This document shows, in pieces, positions 33,871 through 46,829 of a DNA stretch of 64,000 bases; position 1 is the stretch's first letter, and the number at the start of each line of letters is the position of its first letter. The notes beneath the pieces are model-generated. The model did not search any database, was not told the DNA's origin, and saw only the letters and a program-made list of their open reading frames with translations. The stretch is from Streptomyces spinosus (GTDB taxonomy: Bacteria > Actinomycetota > Actinomycetes > Streptomycetales > Streptomycetaceae). Where the stretch lies: contig NZ_JAINRC010000028.1 of NCBI RefSeq assembly GCF_020400655.1, positions 1 through 64,000 of the forward strand. Direction: 5' to 3'. A program made the position numbers and the translations under genes.

Positions 33871-34347
33871 GCGCACCCGTCGTGACGCCGCGCCTCCTCC
33901 GCCTGCCGCTGACCGCACCGCTGACCGCGGCCGCGCCTCCTCCGCCTGCGAGGCCCGCAGGCAGGCCGCCGGGGCCGCGGCGGCGGCCGGTGCGACGGGT
34001 GGCAGGCCCAGCCTGCCGCCGTCCGCGGCTGCGCCGCATCCGGTTCGCCGGCGCCCGCGAGGCGGACCGAGTGCCGCGCGCCGCGCGCCTCGCCCGCGGG
34101 TGCGCCGGCCACGGTCGGCCAGGAGGCGGCGTCTCGCGCACGCGGCCTGCACCAGGGACGTGCGCGGGCCGGCAACGGTACCTAGGCTGGAGAGCGCAGT
34201 TCCGGGACACATCCTGGAACGAGTGACGAAGCAGGAAGACGCGCGACGCAGGGCCCGGTCCGCTGCGGCCAGGCCGCGACGGGAGGCGACCGGCACGGGC
34301 AGGCGCGCCGTCGAGGGCCGGGTATGGGCCGAGGGTGGTTCCGAACC
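33871..34347. other. GC-rich intergenic region upstream of the GAF-LytTR regulator
   Basis: About 475 nt with extreme GC content, especially 33890-34130. I see no gene, repeat or clear terminator. Its last part should carry the promoter of the regulator. Confidence 0.5.
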
Positions 34348-38024
<3,677 letters not shown>

Positions 38025-38298: not shown

Positions 38299-38763
38299 AT
38301 GACGACGACCGCGCACGAGCGGGCCGACCTGCTGGACAAGCTCGGGTTGGCCACACAGAACAAAGCAGCGCTGGGTCAGGTGCTGGGAACCGGAAGCATC
38401 GGGCAGGCAACCGAGGAACCGGACGGCCGTATGAAGGCCACCATTCGCATCCATCCGGACGAGCTGACCTGGGATCCCTCCATTCTGGTCATGCCGCACG
38501 GAGGCGATATCGAGTTGGAGCTCGTCAACGACGACAAGAACACGCACTGCGCACTTCTGCCGAGCAATGGCGACAGGAAGTTCATCTGGCTGGTGAACCA
38601 TTCGCACGGGCATGCGCACCTCAACCTCGACGGTCCGGGCTACTACTGGTTCGGCTCGCCCACGGGCAATGACGAGGGCCGGGGGCTGACCGGGTCCATC
38701 GTGGTCCTGGGAGACGCTCCGCCGGAGGCCCGCCTCGACCGTCCCGAACAGCCGCGGCCGTAG
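38299..38763 (+). CDS. MSMEG_3727-type PQQ-associated cupredoxin-like protein
   Basis: The protein has 154 residues, without a signal peptide. After a 50-residue N-terminus there is a cupredoxin-like beta domain (IRIHPDELTWDPSILVMPHGG, ELVNDDKNTHCALLPSNGD, FIWLVNHSHGHAHLNLDGPG, read as separate strands). His and Cys residues (DDKNTHC, NHSHGHAH) could bind copper or haem-like ligands. Its place 22 nt before a PQQ dehydrogenase matches the actinobacterial PQQ-associated protein family named after MSMEG_3727. It may be the electron acceptor or a partner of the dehydrogenase; the exact role is not known to me. Confidence 0.75.
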   Translation: MTTTAHERADLLDKLGLATQNKAALGQVLGTGSIGQATEEPDGRMKATIRIHPDELTWDPSILVMPHGGDIELELVNDDKNTHCALLPSNGDRKFIWLVNHSHGHAHLNLDGPGYYWFGSPTGNDEGRGLTGSIVVLGDAPPEARLDRPEQPRP

Positions 38764-38785
38764 GCAGAAGCAGGAGGTGGAGGAA

Positions 38786-40495
38786 ATGACCGTCGACTAC
38801 GCCGACTACGTCGACGCGGGTGAGGCCGTCGACCAGGGAACCCTGAATTACAAGACCCCTGGCGGAGACGTCGCGCCGCCGGTAGTGGCCGGTGTCGACT
38901 ACGAGCGCATACTCAACGCGCGCCAGGAACCCCAGAACTGGCTCACCTACTACGGCGCCTACAACGGGCAGCGCTACAGCCCGCTGGACCAGATCAACAC
39001 GGACAACGTCAAGCGCATGGTCCCCGCCTGGGTCTTCCAGGCCGGCACGACCGGACTGATCGCGGGCGCGTCGACCTACTCGTTCGAGGCCGCCCCGATC
39101 GTCGTCGACGGGGTCATGTTCCTCTCCGGCTGGGACGGCTGGGTATGGGCCCTAGACGCGAAGACGGGCGTGGAGATCTGGCGGTACAAGCACGCGGTCC
39201 CCTTCGACGTGTCCTTGTGCTGCGGGAACGTGAACCGCGGGGTCGCCGTGGCCCAGGGGAAGGTCTTCTTCGTCACGGCGAACGCCCGGGTGCTGGCGCT
39301 CGACGCCACCACCGGCAGGCGGGTCTGGGACAAGACCTACGGCGACGTCCGGGCGGGGGAGAGCGCCACGCTCGCCCCTCTCGTCGTGAAGAACATGGTC
39401 ATCGTCGGAAGTTCCGGCGGCGAGTTCGGCGTACGCGGCCACCTCGACGCGTTCGATCTCGAAACCGGCGAGCACCAGTGGCGCTGCTACACGGTTCCCA
39501 AGCCCGGGGAGCCCGGCTCGGAGACCTGGCCCGCCGACGGCGAGGCCTGGGCACGGGGCGGGGCGAACTGCTGGATCACCGGCACCTTCGACCCGGAGAC
39601 GAACCTGCTGTACGTGGGCACCGGCAACCCGGCGCCCGACTTCGACGGAGAGGTCCGCGAGGGCGACAACCTCTTCACCGACAGCATCATCGCCGTGGAC
39701 GTGGACAGCGGTCAGATCCGCTGGCACTACCAGTGCACCCCGCACGACGTGTGGGACTACGACAGCATCGGCGAGTGCATCCTGTTCGAGCAGGACGGCC
39801 GCAAACTGCTCGGTCACTTCGACAAGAACGGCTACTTCTTCGTCCTCGACCGCACGAACGGCGCGAGGGTCGGGATCACCCCCTTCGTCGACCGCATCAC
39901 CTGGGGGGCGATCACGAGGGACGGCCAGGTGACGGCCAAGGTGTACCCGGACAAGGAGGGAGAACCGGTCCACTTCTACCCCGGTCCGGCCGGTGCCAAG
40001 GAATGGACCCATGCGGCCTACAGTCCGAAGACCGGACTGTTCTACGTCCCGGTCCAGGACACCGGTGCCACGGCCACCCGGCGGCGGCGGGAGTTCAAGG
40101 AGAGCATTCCGTACTGGGGTGCGGGCGTTCAGGTGGACATCGGGGACATGGCGGGGTCCATCAGCGCCTTCGACGCCGCCGGCGAGGAGAAGTGGCGCTG
40201 GCGCAACGACCTCCCGATGTGCGCTTCGACGCTGGCCACCGGCGGTGACCTGGTGTTCGCCGGTGAGCCCTCCGGGGAGTTCAACGCACTCGACGCCCGC
40301 ACCGGGGAGCTGCTGTGGCAGTTCCAGTGCGGAAGCGGCCACCACAGCAGCCCGACCACCTACATGGTCGACGGCAGGCAGTACGTGGCCGTGCCCGTCG
40401 GCTGGGGCGGATGGGCCGAGGGATTCCTCCCCGGCATGCTCGGCGCGGGGCACGGAAGCGCCCTGATCGTCTTCGCCCTTCCGGAACCGTCGTAG
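38786..40495 (+). CDS. PQQ-dependent alcohol dehydrogenase (quinoprotein, predicted lanthanide type)
   Basis: The ATG at 38786 follows AGGAGGTGGAGG and gives 569 residues. The eight-bladed propeller with W-motifs is evident (SGWDGWVWALDAKTG, GDLVFAGEPSGEFNALDA). The adjacent cysteines SLCCGNVNRG (about residue 144) form the vicinal disulfide of quinoprotein alcohol dehydrogenases. The catalytic Asp is in TPHDVWDYDS (about 321). A second Asp two residues later gives the D-x-D arrangement that marks lanthanide-dependent XoxF/PedH/ExaF enzymes; calcium enzymes have Ala or Ser there. No signal peptide is visible, which is odd because classical members work outside the membrane. Alcohol or aldehyde substrate unknown. 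It precedes the pqq genes that make its cofactor. Confidence 0.93.
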   Translation: MTVDYADYVDAGEAVDQGTLNYKTPGGDVAPPVVAGVDYERILNARQEPQNWLTYYGAYNGQRYSPLDQINTDNVKRMVPAWVFQAGTTGLIAGASTYSFEAAPIVVDGVMFLSGWDGWVWALDAKTGVEIWRYKHAVPFDVSLCCGNVNRGVAVAQGKVFFVTANARVLALDATTGRRVWDKTYGDVRAGESATLAPLVVKNMVIVGSSGGEFGVRGHLDAFDLETGEHQWRCYTVPKPGEPGSETWPADGEAWARGGANCWITGTFDPETNLLYVGTGNPAPDFDGEVREGDNLFTDSIIAVDVDSGQIRWHYQCTPHDVWDYDSIGECILFEQDGRKLLGHFDKNGYFFVLDRTNGARVGITPFVDRITWGAITRDGQVTAKVYPDKEGEPVHFYPGPAGAKEWTHAAYSPKTGLFYVPVQDTGATATRRRREFKESIPYWGAGVQVDIGDMAGSISAFDAAGEEKWRWRNDLPMCASTLATGGDLVFAGEPSGEFNALDARTGELLWQFQCGSGHHSSPTTYMVDGRQYVAVPVGWGGWAEGFLPGMLGAGHGSALIVFALPEPS

Positions 40496-40543: not shown

Positions 40544-40639
40544 ATGGAGTCTCAGCTCGCCGTGTGGGAGACGCCCGATTTCGACGAGGTCGCAGTCGCG
40601 GCCGAGGTGACCATGTACCTTGCCCGGTTGGAGGACTAG
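40544..40639 (+). CDS. pqqA: PQQ precursor peptide PqqA
   Basis: A 31-codon gene begins with the ATG at 40544 and has a very strong ribosome binding site (AGAGGAGGTGG). The peptide contains Glu21 and Tyr25 in the E-x3-Y spacing (EVTMY) that PqqE cross-links during PQQ biosynthesis, and the family-typical WETPDF near its N-terminus. It lies 48 nt after the PQQ dehydrogenase and upstream of pqqC, pqqD and pqqE. Confidence 0.93.
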   Translation: MESQLAVWETPDFDEVAVAAEVTMYLARLED

Positions 40640-40945
40640 CGGATGATGGGCGGCACCGGACCTGGTCCGGCGTCGCCCGACGGTTCGGGAGGCCGCGGCC
40701 GGCCGACACGCACGCACTCGTGCGGCCCGGTCCGGCCGGCGAGACGCCGCGGGTCATGGGCCGCCTTCCATCGACGGCCCGGACTGAAGCCTGACGCGGG
40801 TCCCCTTCGCCCGATGAGGGCGGACGATCCGCGTGCACACGAACAACGCCGCCCCGGTCCCCGTGGAGGACACGCCCGAGCGGCGTTCCCTGGAGGAGCG
40901 GCATGGAAGGGGCCAGGAACGGCCTCGAGGTCCAGGTGTACAGCC
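40640..40945. other. Spacer between pqqA and pqqC
   Basis: About 305 nt, unusually long inside a pqq operon. No gene with a recognisable family is present; pqqB, which is commonly found at this place, is absent. A 38-codon GTG frame starts near 40831 but shows no PqqA-like E-x3-Y motif. Confidence 0.55.
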
Positions 40946-41644
40946 GTGACGACGACAACCATCACAACCGGCGCCGACGGTTTCGTGGAGACGCTGCGGG
41001 CCCACTCGCGGCGCTACCACGACCAGCACCCGTTCCACGTCCGGATGAACGCCGGCCGGCTGAGCCGTCGCCAGATCCGGGGCTGGGTGGCCAACCGCTT
41101 CTACTACCAGGAGAACATCCCCCGCAAGGACGCCGCGATCCTTTCCAACTGCCCCGACGTGGAGGTCCGTCGCCGCTGGATCCGGCGGATCGTCGAGCAC
41201 GACGGCACGGCCGCGGGCGAGGGCGGCATCGAGGCATGGCTGCGCCTCGCCGAGGCCGCCGGGCTGACCCGTGAGGAGGTCCGGGACCACCGGCACCTGG
41301 TACCGGGGGTGCGGTTCGCCGTCGACGCCTACGTGAACTTCGCCCGGACCCGCCCGTGGGTGGAGGCGGTGGCGTCCTCGCTCACGGAGCTGTTCGCGCC
41401 CGACCTGATGGCGGCGCGGCTCGCCGCGTTCGAGCGGTGGTACCCGTGGATCGCCCCCGAGGGCCTCGCCTACTTCCGCGCCCGCCTGGAGCAGGCCCCC
41501 CGCGACTGCGAGCACGCCCTGGAGGTGGTCACCGCGCACTGCCTCTCCGCCGAGTCCCAGGCGCGCGCCGTCGACGCGCTGTCGTTCAAGTGCGATGTCC
41601 TGTGGAGCCTCATGGACGCCATCGACCAGGCCTACCCGGAGTGA
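40946..41644 (+). CDS. pqqC: Pyrroloquinoline-quinone synthase PqqC
   Basis: The GTG at 40946 gives 232 residues, the normal PqqC length. Typical motifs include [60 protein letters not shown] and [19 protein letters not shown]. PqqC catalyses the final ring closure and eight-electron oxidation to PQQ, consuming molecular oxygen and releasing hydrogen peroxide. The following gene begins at or over its stop codon (GTGA). Confidence 0.93.
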
Positions 41645-41649
41645 CCACC

Positions 41650-41979
41650 ATGGACCCGACCCGTACCGGAACGACCCACAGCAGCAGCACGACCCGGCCC
41701 GGCGCCGGGGTGTCCGGCCTGGACCGGCCCCGGTTGGCTGCCCATGTCCGGCTCACCTTCTGCCGGACCAGGCAGCGCAAGGTCCTGCTGCACCCCGAGA
41801 CGGTCGTGGTTCTGAACGGCAGCGGCGCGGCCATCCTGGAGCTGTGCGACGGGCGGCACACCGTGGCCGAGATCGTGGACGAGCTGGGCGCCCGCTATCA
41901 GACCGTTCCCGAGGACGACGTCCGGCAGTTCCTGGCCCGGCTCGTCGCCCGGCGCTGGGTGGAGCTCACCGATGGATAG
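41650..41979 (+). CDS. pqqD: PQQ biosynthesis peptide chaperone PqqD
   Basis: The ATG at 41650 with GGAG eight bases upstream gives 109 residues; a GTG at 41641 overlapping the pqqC stop is an alternative. The C-terminal 85 residues show the RiPP-recognition-element fold typical of PqqD (RQRKVLLHPETVVVLNGSGA, ILELCDGRHTVAEIVDEL). PqqD presents PqqA to the radical SAM enzyme PqqE. Its end overlaps the pqqE start by 8 nt, indicating coupling. Confidence 0.93.
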   Translation: MDPTRTGTTHSSSTTRPGAGVSGLDRPRLAAHVRLTFCRTRQRKVLLHPETVVVLNGSGAAILELCDGRHTVAEIVDELGARYQTVPEDDVRQFLARLVARRWVELTDG

Positions 41980-43803: not shown

Positions 43804-43992
43804 TCAGACGGTGCGCGAAATAAACCTGGAAAAGTCGAAGTCCGGATCATTTTCATTGAGTGTCAATTCCGTCCGGCACGCTATGGTGCCGTCCTTCGGA
43901 CCGGCGAGGTGGACGTCGCCCGGACACCGGCGGCACCGACCGAACGCCCCAGGCGCCGCCCGGCCGGCCTCGGTTGCCGCGTCAATCACCAC
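43804..43992 (-). CDS. Small Cys-containing protein at the end of the P450 operon
   Basis: A GTG at 43992 overlaps the last 11 nt of the P450 gene and gives 62 residues; a second GTG at 43989 is equally possible. The centre has CRRCPGDVHLAGPKDGTIAC, with a C-x2-C pair and a third Cys, so metal binding is conceivable. The acidic C-terminus is ENDPDFDFSRFISRTV. The codon GC bias falls in the last third. I do not recognise a family. Overlap with the P450 argues that it is real and translationally coupled; it could be a P450 partner or a small regulator. Confidence 0.55.
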   Translation of the reverse strand: MVIDAATEAGRAAPGAFGRCRRCPGDVHLAGPKDGTIACRTELTLNENDPDFDFSRFISRTV

Positions 43993-45202
43993 CTTGCTCG
44001 ACGTCCAGATGGACCGGCCCCCGGAGAACGGGGCTGGGCCGGTACGGCGGCGGATCGGCGACCAGCCTGGGGCGGTCGAGTCGGCGTACCAGCTCGGTCA
44101 GCGCGATCTGGGTTTCCCGCCGGGCCAGCGCGGCGCCGAAACAGGAGTGGATGCCGCTGCCGAAGCCCAGGTGCTGGTTGTCACGCCGATCCGGGTCGAA
44201 GCGGTCGGGATCGTGGAAGCGGTTCGGATCGCGGTTGCCGGAGGCCAGCATGAGCATGATCTGCGAGCCTTTGGGGATGACGGTGTCGGCCACGGTGATG
44301 TCGCTGTAGGCCGCCCGCCAGGGAACGATGTGCACGGGTGGCTCGTAGCGCAGTAGTTCCTCGACCAGTGGTACGACGAGGTCGGGTTGGTGACGCAGTC
44401 GTCGCAGCACCTGCGGGTGGCGCAGCAGCGTCAGCATGCCGTTGGCGATGAGGTTGACGATCGTCTCGTGGCCGGCGATGAGCAGCAGTTTGGCGGTGGC
44501 GGCGATTTCTGCGTCGGTCATCCGGCCGTCGGGCCCGTCATCGTTGGCCAGCCGGGCCAGCAGACCGTCGCCGGGCCGGCCGTGGCGCTGTTCCACCAGC
44601 CCGCCGAGGTGCCGGCGCAGGTCCTTGCGCGCCTGTACACCCTTGTCCAGCCTCTCCTTGGGGTCGGTCTCGGGGTCGTAGTCGACCGAGTTCATGATGT
44701 CGTTCACCCAGCGGTGGAACCGCCGTTCGTCCTCACGTGGAACGCCGAGCAGGTGGCAGGTCACGGTCACGGGCAACCGGCAGGCGAAATCGTCGACGAC
44801 GTCGATCCGCTCCTTGCCCGCGAAATCGTCGATCAGGCTGTTCACCGTGGAGGTCAGGTCGCCTTCCATGCCGGCCACCAGCCCCGGGGTGTGCGGGGGG
44901 CCGAAGTGGCGCATCGCCATACGCCGCAGGCGATCGTGCTCGGGCGGGTCCTTCTTGATGAACGCCGTCGTGACGCCTTCCTCGAGCGCGGGCATCGGAC
45001 GCGACAGGTTGCGCACGTCGGAGCTCAGGCGCGGGTCGTGCAGCAGGTCGGTGATCTCGTGATAGGTGCTGACGACGTAGCCGGCGTCCTCGTGCACCGC
45101 CACCGGGTTCTGGCGCAACTCGGCATACAGCGGGTACGGGTCGGCCCGCGCGGAGTAGTCGAAGATCCGTCGCAAGGTACCGTGCGTCCGGGCCGTGGTC
45201 AT
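43982..45202 (-). CDS. Cytochrome P450
   Basis: The ATG at 45202, with GGGAGGAGGG upstream, gives 406 residues, the usual bacterial P450 length. The I-helix motif is LLIAGHETIVN (about residue 243). The ExxR motif is VEELLRYEPP (about 281). The haem-thiolate loop is LGFGSGIHSCFGAALARRE with the Cys at about 351. It is a class I soluble bacterial P450. Its start overlaps the stop of the ferredoxin reductase gene (ATGA), and the ferredoxin gene is just upstream, so its redox partners are encoded together. Substrate unknown; such orphan P450 units hydroxylate terpenoids, fatty acids or xenobiotics. Confidence 0.95.
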   Translation of the reverse strand: MTTARTHGTLRRIFDYSARADPYPLYAELRQNPVAVHEDAGYVVSTYHEITDLLHDPRLSSDVRNLSRPMPALEEGVTTAFIKKDPPEHDRLRRMAMRHFGPPHTPGLVAGMEGDLTSTVNSLIDDFAGKERIDVVDDFACRLPVTVTCHLLGVPREDERRFHRWVNDIMNSVDYDPETDPKERLDKGVQARKDLRRHLGGLVEQRHGRPGDGLLARLANDDGPDGRMTDAEIAATAKLLLIAGHETIVNLIANGMLTLLRHPQVLRRLRHQPDLVVPLVEELLRYEPPVHIVPWRAAYSDITVADTVIPKGSQIMLMLASGNRDPNRFHDPDRFDPDRRDNQHLGFGSGIHSCFGAALARRETQIALTELVRRLDRPRLVADPPPYRPSPVLRGPVHLDVEQGGD

Positions 45203-46605
45203 CCGGCCCTCCTCCCGCCGGTACCGGTGCACGGCCCTGACGCGGCGCTCACCCGGGTCCGGCCGGTGACGACCGCGGTGGCGCCCTGGGCGAGCAGGCC
45301 GGGGCCGGGCAGGCCGACCGGTACCGGTCGTGCGTCGGCCGGCTGGTCCGGCATGGGACAGCGTGGCGGGAAAGGCGCGGCCGTCTCGATCAACCGCCGA
45401 TAGTGGTGCAGCCACTTGGCGCTGTCGAAGCTCACGGCGGCCGTGACGCGGCCCCGACAGCCGTATGCGGCGACGAACCGGTGGTCGTCCACCGATCCCT
45501 GGGTCACGACCACCTCGTCGGCGAAGGTCGGCACGCCGACGGACTTGATGTTGACGCCGAACTGGATCGACCAGAACACCGGGATCGAAAGACACGGCCG
45601 GCGGTCCGCCTCGGCGCTGACCATGTTGTGTGCCGCGACCTCGGCCTGCTCCACGGCGTTGGCCCAGTGCTCCAGTGAGATGAGCCGGTCCTCGTAGAGG
45701 GGATGCGGGCAACGTGCCACGTCCCCCGCGGCGAAGACGTCCTCGGTGGCTCGGCCACTGACATCGAGGGCGCGGCAGCCCGTGTCGCAGGCGACTCCCC
45801 ACACGCCCGCCGCCAGTCCCGACCCTCGTAGCCACTCGGTGTTGCGGATGCTTCCGAGTGCCACTACCGCCACATCGGCGTCGACCGTACCGCCGTCGCC
45901 GAAGTGAGCACGGCGGAACCGCCCCCGCGCGTCGCCCTCAAGCCGGGTGACCTCGACACCGCACCGCAGGTCGACACCATGAGTGCGCTGCAAGTCGGCC
46001 GCGACGTCACCGATCACGGCACCCAGCGCCCCGGTCAGCGGTGCCGCTGCGAGTTCGGCGACCGTCACCGGCAGGCCCCGCTCACGGCAGGCGGAGGCGA
46101 TCTCGCAGCCGGTGAATCCGGCCCCGATGATCAGGACGCGGGAAGGCCCGGCGGCGAGGGCTCGCCGCAGGCTCTCGGCATGCTCGCGCGTGCGCACCAC
46201 GAACACCCCGTCCAGCGCCGCCTCGGACTCGACGGACCACGGCCGGGCCCGTACTCCGGTGGCGATCAGTACCCGGTCGAAGGGGACGCAGCGTCCGTCG
46301 GCGAGTCGCACGTGTTTCGTCGCGAGGTCCAGCCCGCCGGCGGGCACACCCAGCAGCCACTCCGCGTCGAGGCCGCGACGGCGGGGCAACGTGGTGCCCC
46401 CGGCCCGCACCCACCCGGTCAGTACCTGCTTGGACAGGGGAGGCCGGTCGTAGGGCTCGCCCAACTCGTCACCGATCATGGTCAACGATCCTGTGAAACC
46501 CTCGGCGCGCAGGGCCTCCGCAGCCCGCAGTCCCGCCAGTGACGCGCCGACGACCACGACGCGGCCATCGCGCTTGAACGCCCGCGGAGTGCCGGCACTG
46601 GTCAC
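45199..46605 (-). CDS. FAD-dependent ferredoxin reductase for the P450
   Basis: The GTG at 46605 overlaps the stop of the ferredoxin gene (GTGA) and gives 468 residues. Two dinucleotide-binding motifs are visible: VVVGASLAGLRAAEALRAEG (FAD, near residue 16) and LIIGAGFTGCEIASACRERG (NAD(P)H, near 155). The second FAD motif is ATEDVFAAGDVARCPHP. The C-terminal reductase domain contains FWSIQFGVNIKSVG. This matches putidaredoxin reductase-type proteins. The C-terminal 60 residues are Pro/Gly-rich beyond the usual length. It transfers electrons from NAD(P)H to the ferredoxin. Confidence 0.93.
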   Translation of the reverse strand: MTSAGTPRAFKRDGRVVVVGASLAGLRAAEALRAEGFTGSLTMIGDELGEPYDRPPLSKQVLTGWVRAGGTTLPRRRGLDAEWLLGVPAGGLDLATKHVRLADGRCVPFDRVLIATGVRARPWSVESEAALDGVFVVRTREHAESLRRALAAGPSRVLIIGAGFTGCEIASACRERGLPVTVAELAAAPLTGALGAVIGDVAADLQRTHGVDLRCGVEVTRLEGDARGRFRRAHFGDGGTVDADVAVVALGSIRNTEWLRGSGLAAGVWGVACDTGCRALDVSGRATEDVFAAGDVARCPHPLYEDRLISLEHWANAVEQAEVAAHNMVSAEADRRPCLSIPVFWSIQFGVNIKSVGVPTFADEVVVTQGSVDDHRFVAAYGCRGRVTAAVSFDSAKWLHHYRRLIETAAPFPPRCPMPDQPADARPVPVGLPGPGLLAQGATAVVTGRTRVSAASGPCTGTGGRRAG

Positions 46606-46829
46606 GGCGCCGACGCCTCCACCGGGGCGTCCCGTTCCTCCAGCCGGTCGACCAGAATCGCTTGGACCGGGCAGGCCGCCGCGGCGCGCAGCACAGGGCC
46701 GCGCTGGGTGTCGTCGGGGCCCGGGTCGTACATCAGCGCCTCCTCGCCGTGCATCCGGAACGCCTCCGGAGCCAGGAAGGCGCACTGTGCGTACCCTTCA
46801 CACCGGGAAAGATCAACGACCACTCTCAT
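46602..46829 (-). CDS. 3Fe-4S-type ferredoxin
   Basis: The ATG at 46829, after GGAGATCGGG, gives 75 residues; an ATG at 46841 adds four. Cysteines are spaced C-x5-C (RCEGYAQCAFLAPEAF) with a distal C-P (AAACPVQAI), which is the pattern of 3Fe-4S ferredoxins serving actinobacterial P450s. It leads the ferredoxin, reductase, P450 operon. Confidence 0.92.
   Translation of the reverse strand: MRVVVDLSRCEGYAQCAFLAPEAFRMHGEEALMYDPGPDDTQRGPVLRAAAACPVQAILVDRLEERDAPVEASAP

What the first reader, a model, noticed from the sequence alone, without database searches (positions are those of the whole stretch)
38786..40495. PQQ alcohol dehydrogenase with a lanthanide-type D-x-D motif and no visible signal peptide
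Seen: the catalytic region TPHDVWDYDS has a second Asp two residues after the catalytic Asp, and the N-terminus is hydrophilic. Known: this extra Asp distinguishes lanthanide-dependent XoxF/PedH/ExaF enzymes from calcium-dependent ones, and such enzymes normally act outside the cytoplasmic membrane. Inferred: a rare-earth-dependent enzyme in an actinomycete, perhaps cytoplasmic or exported with the partner protein.
Basis: partly seen in the sequence, partly recalled or inferred. Interest (0 to 1): 0.7.

Follow-up and report, generated by a model that had tools for sequence, protein, structure and literature searches.

The report
Signal-less lanthanide-type quinoprotein alcohol dehydrogenase
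A soil actinomycete carries an alcohol-oxidising enzyme with the full set of metal-binding residues seen in rare-earth-dependent enzymes, but, unlike its studied relatives, neither it nor its constant partner protein has an export signal, so it may work inside the cell.

Summary
The ORF (ATG 38786 to 40495, + strand) is a TIGR03075 PQQ-dependent dehydrogenase. It has the D-x-D (D324, D326), the other two metal ligands (E213, N281) and the Gly before that Glu seen in lanthanide enzymes; the calcium enzymes compared have A/S/T instead of D326. D-x-D alone is not proof: E. coli Gcd also has it. About 90 relatives across Actinomycetota keep it, and none has a signal peptide, whereas other actinobacterial PQQ enzymes do. 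The family is a separate clade, outside XoxF and PedH. It always lies next to the MSMEG_3727-family protein (80/80 named loci; same nine genomes of 199 in the genus). That partner is predicted to be a signal-less cupredoxin fold lacking type-1 copper ligands. "Exported with the partner" is not supported; a cytoplasmic quinoprotein is the simplest reading, unproven. A cation transporter (MntP-like or Na/Ca-exchanger-like) sits within 6 kb in 57/80 loci and KatG in 59/80. The operon's own pqqB is a relic here. The gene pair was already catalogued; the metal site, missing signal, partner fold and transporter link were not found described in the papers searched. New variant of a known kind.

The parts
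34324..35742 (+). GAF-like (DhaR-type N-terminus) plus LytTR regulator, likely senses substrate
   Evidence: LytTR PF04397 and weak DhaR match; homologue near the ADH in 62 of 80 named loci
35784..38024 (+). catalase-peroxidase KatG, second copy in the genome
   Evidence: TIGR00198 1137 bits; other copy at G000:C77; near the ADH in 59 of 80 loci, moved to the other side in 4
38299..38763 (+). partner protein, TIGR04339/PF23509 (MSMEG_3727 family); cupredoxin fold lacking the Cys/His/Met copper loop; no signal peptide
38786..40495 (+). PQQ-dependent alcohol dehydrogenase, TIGR03075, no signal peptide
39218..39223 (+). vicinal cysteines C145-C146 of the quinoprotein fold
   Evidence: invariant; also in the PDB relatives compared
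39422..39424 (+). metal ligand E213, preceded by Gly212 (lanthanide-type; Ala or Asp in the calcium enzymes compared)
   Evidence: alignment to PedH, XoxF, ExaA, MxaF
39626..39628 (+). metal ligand N281
39755..39757 (+). catalytic D324
39761..39763 (+). extra D326 of D-x-D
40544..40639 (+). pqqA precursor peptide
   Evidence: TIGR02107
40717..40938 (+). relic of pqqB (C-terminal remnant with stops and frameshifts)
   Evidence: tblastn of a relative's pqqB, E 4e-12, 57% over 49 residues with stops
40976..41644 (+). pqqC (true start near here; the longer mechanical ORF from 40643 runs through the pqqB relic)
   Evidence: TIGR02111 matches residues 114-331 of the long ORF
41650..41979 (+). pqqD
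   Evidence: TIGR03859
41972..43075 (+). pqqE radical SAM enzyme
   Evidence: TIGR02109 517 bits
43180..43719 (-). MntP-like cation transporter, the only PF02659 member in the genome
   Evidence: PF02659, only hit in 9.17 Mb, near the ADH in 43 of 80 loci

Best explanation
It is the catalytic protein of an actinobacterial PQQ-dependent alcohol oxidation system with a lanthanide-type metal site, which most likely acts in the cytoplasm. Shown: the eight-bladed PQQ-dehydrogenase family, the complete E-N-D-D ligand set, Gly212, strict conservation, no export signal on enzyme or partner, the invariant partner, and the pqq genes in the operon. Inferred: PQQ made in the cytoplasm binds with a trivalent lanthanide (calcium perhaps as a poorer substitute), D324 acts as the base and D326 gives the extra carboxylate for the higher-charge ion; the enzyme oxidises an alcohol whose identity is unknown. 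Electrons leave through or with the help of the copper-less cupredoxin-like partner, not through a c-type cytochrome. The neighbouring cation transporter keeps the cell's Ca/Mn/Ln balance, and KatG removes peroxide if reduced PQQ leaks electrons to oxygen.
For: Metal site: all four ligands and Gly212 match lanthanide enzymes; the calcium enzymes in the same alignment differ at D326 (A/S/T) and Gly212 (A/D). Closest solved chain by sequence is lanthanide PedH, 388 bits against 323 and 319 for calcium enzymes; closest by fold also PedH, Z 42.4. Localisation: no signal in 89 ADH and 90 partner sequences, while more distant actinobacterial PQQ enzymes carry Tat, Sec or lipobox N-termini (L126, L125, L123, L128, L133). 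Partner obligatory: 80/80 loci, identical nine genomes of 199 in the genus. Transporter: MntP-like or Na/Ca-exchanger-like gene within 6 kb in 57/80 loci, nearly exclusive of each other (41 only, 14 only, 2 both).
Against: No activity, metal content or localisation has been measured. D-x-D occurs in Ca/Mg enzymes such as Gcd (PMC11996626). The vicinal cysteines, usually a disulphide of exported quinoproteins, are invariant. All characterised enzymes of the family that I know of are extracytoplasmic. The position equivalent to Arg331 is Lys, as in calcium quinohaemoprotein ADHs and unlike XoxF/PedH. The model's pLDDT near the metal site is low (blocks of 51-66 around E213, N281 and D324/D326). 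MntP and Na/Ca exchangers usually export cations.
Confidence: 0.5

Rival explanations
1. The enzyme uses calcium, or either metal, and the second Asp is not diagnostic in this clade.
For: E. coli Gcd has WDMD at the same place and m-GDH complexes with Ca, Mg, Zn, Sr although it carries the motif (PMC11996626). The clade is outside both proven lanthanide clades. Lys replaces the Arg of XoxF/PedH. Na/Ca exchangers are the neighbours in 14-16 loci.
Against: Gcd lacks the other two ligands in the alignment (N and V instead of E and N), whereas this clade has all four plus Gly212. Calcium enzymes nested in lanthanide clades (MxaF, ExaA) have A or S in place of the second Asp.
Confidence: 0.3
2. The protein is exported without a classical signal, for example by Tat as a folded hitchhiker on another protein.
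For: Known relatives work outside the membrane. The vicinal cysteines are kept. In one haloarchaeon the protein before a signal-less PQQ-ADH has a Tat-like RREFLKALG stretch (L165:3012-3950, weak Pfam E 0.03).
Against: The partner has no signal, and no signal was seen on the other conserved neighbours read. Three other haloarchaeal loci lack the Tat-like stretch. A carrier would have to be encoded elsewhere.
Confidence: 0.25
3. The cluster is decaying in this strain and the enzyme is not active.
For: pqqB of the operon is a relic.
Against: The ADH has dN/dS about 0.07-0.12. Two other pqqB genes and a second pqqE exist in the genome, with pqqB and pqqC side by side at C66.
Confidence: 0.05

Closest known systems
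PedH of Pseudomonas putida (PDB 6zcv/6zcw), lanthanide ethanol dehydrogenase
   Same: Fold (Z 42.4, rmsd 2.5, 41% identity over 521 residues); all four metal ligands and Gly before Glu; TPHDxWDxD motif
   Different: PedH is periplasmic (PMC6839425); it lies in a clade with ExaA apart from this family; WDFDG against WDYDS, Arg against Lys
XoxF methanol dehydrogenases (6oc5, 6dam, 4mae)
   Same: Same metal ligands and Gly
   Different: Separate clade; XoxF of S. meliloti has a hydrophobic N-terminal signal and c-type cytochrome neighbours
MSMEG_3721-3727 cluster of Mycobacterium smegmatis
   Same: Single PQQ-ADH in the pqq cassette, namesake of the TIGR04339 partner family (PMC3023750, PMC6529628)
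   Different: The passages read do not treat its metal, localisation or partner fold; I did not retrieve its sequence
Haloarchaeal PQQ-ADHs on plasmids (L160, L163, L164, L165)
   Same: HDxWDYDS site and no signal peptide; Na/Ca antiporter nearby in 2 of 4
   Different: Own clade; upstream partner of about 305 residues unrelated to TIGR04339 by blastp and hmmsearch

Membership tests
[quoted passage not shown]
   624.2 bits, cut-off 480.05, model positions 5-530 of 530
Lanthanide-dependent PQQ alcohol dehydrogenases | extra Asp two residues after the catalytic Asp | tested here: met
   D326 invariant
Lanthanide-dependent PQQ alcohol dehydrogenases | remaining ligands Glu, Asn, Asp and Gly before Glu | tested here: met
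   E213, N281, D324, G212
Lanthanide-dependent PQQ alcohol dehydrogenases | activity with Ln3+ and metal bound by D326 | not testable with these tools
   no assay; the tools gave no model coordinates and pLDDT is low there
Lanthanide-dependent PQQ alcohol dehydrogenases | exported by an N-terminal signal peptide | tested here: not met
   none in 89 homologues
XoxF methanol dehydrogenase | falls within the XoxF/MxaF clade | tested here: not met
   separate clade, 100/100 support
ExaF/PedH ethanol dehydrogenase | falls within the PedH/ExaA clade | tested here: not met
   separate clade; PedH groups with ExaA and a Methylorubrum protein at 100/100
TIGR04339 / PF23509 partner (MSMEG_3727 family) | score above cut-off, next to a PQQ-ADH | tested here: met
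   293 bits, cut-off 75; 80/80 loci
Type-1 copper protein (cupredoxin) | cupredoxin fold | tested here: met
   Z up to 13.6 to CopA/CupA metal-binding domains, 11.6 to nitrosocyanin; auracyanin best by Foldseek
Type-1 copper protein (cupredoxin) | His plus Cys-His-Met copper ligands | tested here: not met
   H83 kept, but the C-terminal loop is SxxGNDEGRGL in place of Cys/His/Met
MntP manganese exporter | Pfam PF02659 over cut-off | tested here: met
   90.5 bits
MntP manganese exporter | NCBIfam equivalog cut-off for MntP (PRK11469) | tested here: not met
   28.9 bits against 214, so the transported ion is open

The most novel reading that the evidence does not exclude
A cytoplasmic lanthanide-dependent quinoprotein in Gram-positive bacteria, paired with a cupredoxin that has lost its copper site and serves as a copper-free redox or metal-delivery partner, with a dedicated cation transporter.
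Probability: 0.35. Interest if true: 0.8.

Novelty: new variant of a known kind. Interest (0 to 1): 0.55.

Why it matters
Known lanthanide enzymes work outside the cytoplasmic membrane, and a survey of soil genomes took the absence of XoxF in Gram-positive genomes as expected because XoxF is periplasmic (PMC10875860). A conserved actinobacterial clade with the full lanthanide-type site and no export signal would extend rare-earth use to Gram-positives and to the cytoplasm. It would also raise the question of what takes the electrons there and how the metal gets in. [quoted passage not shown]

Tried and rejected
Export with the partner: rejected, as the partner has no signal. Homology of the haloarchaeal upstream protein to TIGR04339: no blastp or profile match. 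Haloarchaeal family as sister clade: not supported, it branches apart. P450 and ferredoxin reductase at 44.0-46.8 kb as part of the system: found near only 1 of 80 other loci. PqqB absent from the genome: rejected, two paralogues exist. Paper searches for cytoplasmic or Gram-positive lanthanide quinoproteins found no description of this family; subscription papers such as the classification by Keltjens et al. 2014 were not held. Several 'other actinobacterial' rows were mis-framed and were left out of the tree; one search reads them correctly.

Full report
Observation. The reading frame is real. ATG 38786 follows a strong ribosome-binding stretch; the GTG at 38777 lies inside it. The protein is over the curated cut-off of TIGR03075. 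Against solved structures the best sequence match is the lanthanide enzyme PedH (388 bits), ahead of the calcium enzymes qhADH (323) and ExaA (319).

Metal site. In an alignment with PedH, two XoxF, ExaA, two quinohaemoprotein ADHs and MxaF, the window protein has E213, N281, D324 and D326, plus Gly212 before the Glu. The three lanthanide enzymes have exactly these. The four calcium enzymes have Ser, Thr or Ala at D326 and Asp or Ala at Gly212 (ligand roles from PMC11845868). Gcd lacks the Glu and Asn ligands in this alignment, so the whole set is the better marker.

Family. A scan of genome contigs gave 80 relatives at 74-98% identity, in Streptomyces, Pseudonocardia, Amycolatopsis, Saccharopolyspora, Geodermatophilus, Rubrobacter, Solirubrobacter and others. 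WDYDS is conserved throughout. In a maximum-likelihood tree the family is one clade with full support, separate from XoxF/MxaF, PedH/ExaA, quinohaemoprotein ADHs and a haloarchaeal group. Calcium enzymes (MxaF, ExaA) sit next to lanthanide enzymes within clades, so clade position does not settle the metal; residues do.

No signal peptide. Over 89 ADH and 90 partner sequences no hydrophobic N-terminal stretch was found (maxima 1.47 and 1.33 on a 12-residue Kyte-Doolittle scale, against 1.97-2.52 for secreted references); no ADH has a twin Arg or an N-terminal Cys, and the few twin Args in partner sequences (3 of 90) come without a hydrophobic stretch. A control within the phylum: more distant actinobacterial PQQ enzymes do carry Tat (L126), Sec (L128) or lipobox (L123, L125, L133) N-termini, read by eye. 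The missing signal is thus a property of this family and not of the phylum or of start-codon choice.

Partner. The TIGR04339 protein lies beside the ADH in all 80 named loci. The same nine of 199 genus genomes hold both, and in 396 genomes of the phylum the sets agree except for incomplete contigs. Its predicted fold is a cupredoxin (pLDDT 80; Z 13.6 to a Cu(I)-binding domain, 11.6 to nitrosocyanin). An invariant His83-Cys84 remains, but the copper loop is replaced by GNDEGRGL. A cupredoxin without copper ligands and without a signal fits a cytoplasmic life; what it carries is unknown.

Neighbourhood. The order is regulator, katG, partner, ADH, pqqA, (pqqB), pqqC, pqqD, pqqE, with an MntP-like gene beyond. 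KatG is near the ADH in 59 of 80 loci and in four has moved to the other side while staying near. A cation transporter is within 6 kb in 57 of 80: MntP-like only in 41, Na/Ca-exchanger-like only in 14, both in 2. In this genome the MntP-like gene is the only member of its family in 9.17 Mb. Na/Ca antiporters also neighbour two of four haloarchaeal signal-less PQQ-ADHs. Loci are related by descent, so the counts are not independent, but changes of side, strand and transporter type argue for a functional tie.

pqqB relic. Most relatives have pqqB between pqqA and pqqC. In the window only a C-terminal remnant with stops is left (40717-40938), and the three nearest relatives lack it too. The genome has a second pqq cluster with pqqB, pqqC and pqqE on C66 and another pqqB on C4; both PqqB are only about 38-47% identical to the in-operon type.

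Mechanism. See Best explanation; family, ligands, conservation, partner and absence of signals are shown, while lanthanide use, cytoplasmic action, electron route and the roles of KatG and the transporter are inferred. Known beforehand: the M. smegmatis cluster and the family names (PMC3023750, PMC6529628). Not found in the papers searched: the lanthanide-type site, lack of export signal, partner fold or transporter link of this family.

Noticed in passing
window 40717-40938: Relic of pqqB with stops between pqqA and pqqC; relatives L033-L035 also lack pqqB there, while other Streptomyces keep it.
   Followed up: yes
L152 (G000:C66:75000-90000) and L153 (G000:C4:42000-58000): Second pqq cluster (pqqB, pqqC, pqqE) on C66 and a further pqqB on C4, both with PqqB only about 40% identical to the in-operon type; no other TIGR03075 enzyme in the genome over cut-off.
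   Followed up: partly
L160, L163, L164, L165: Haloarchaeal plasmids carry signal-less PQQ-ADHs with HDxWDYDS, each preceded by an unknown protein of about 305 residues; in L165 that protein has a Tat-like N-terminus, and Na/Ca antiporters are near in L163 and L165.
   Followed up: partly
L058, L079, L094-L096, L099-L101 and others, downstream of pqqE: A Na/Ca-exchanger-like gene takes the place of the MntP-like gene beside the pqq operon in 14 of 80 loci.
   Followed up: yes
window 35784-38024: KatG next to a PQQ dehydrogenase, a second copy besides one at G000:C77; it hints at peroxide made by the system.
   Followed up: partly
window 43982-46785, - strand: Cytochrome P450 and ferredoxin reductase; homologues near the ADH also in Solirubrobacter L089 only.
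   Followed up: partly
L127 (G167:C2): A PQQ-ADH 60% identical with WDFDG instead of WDYDS, interrupted by a TGA; possibly a sister subfamily.
   Followed up: no
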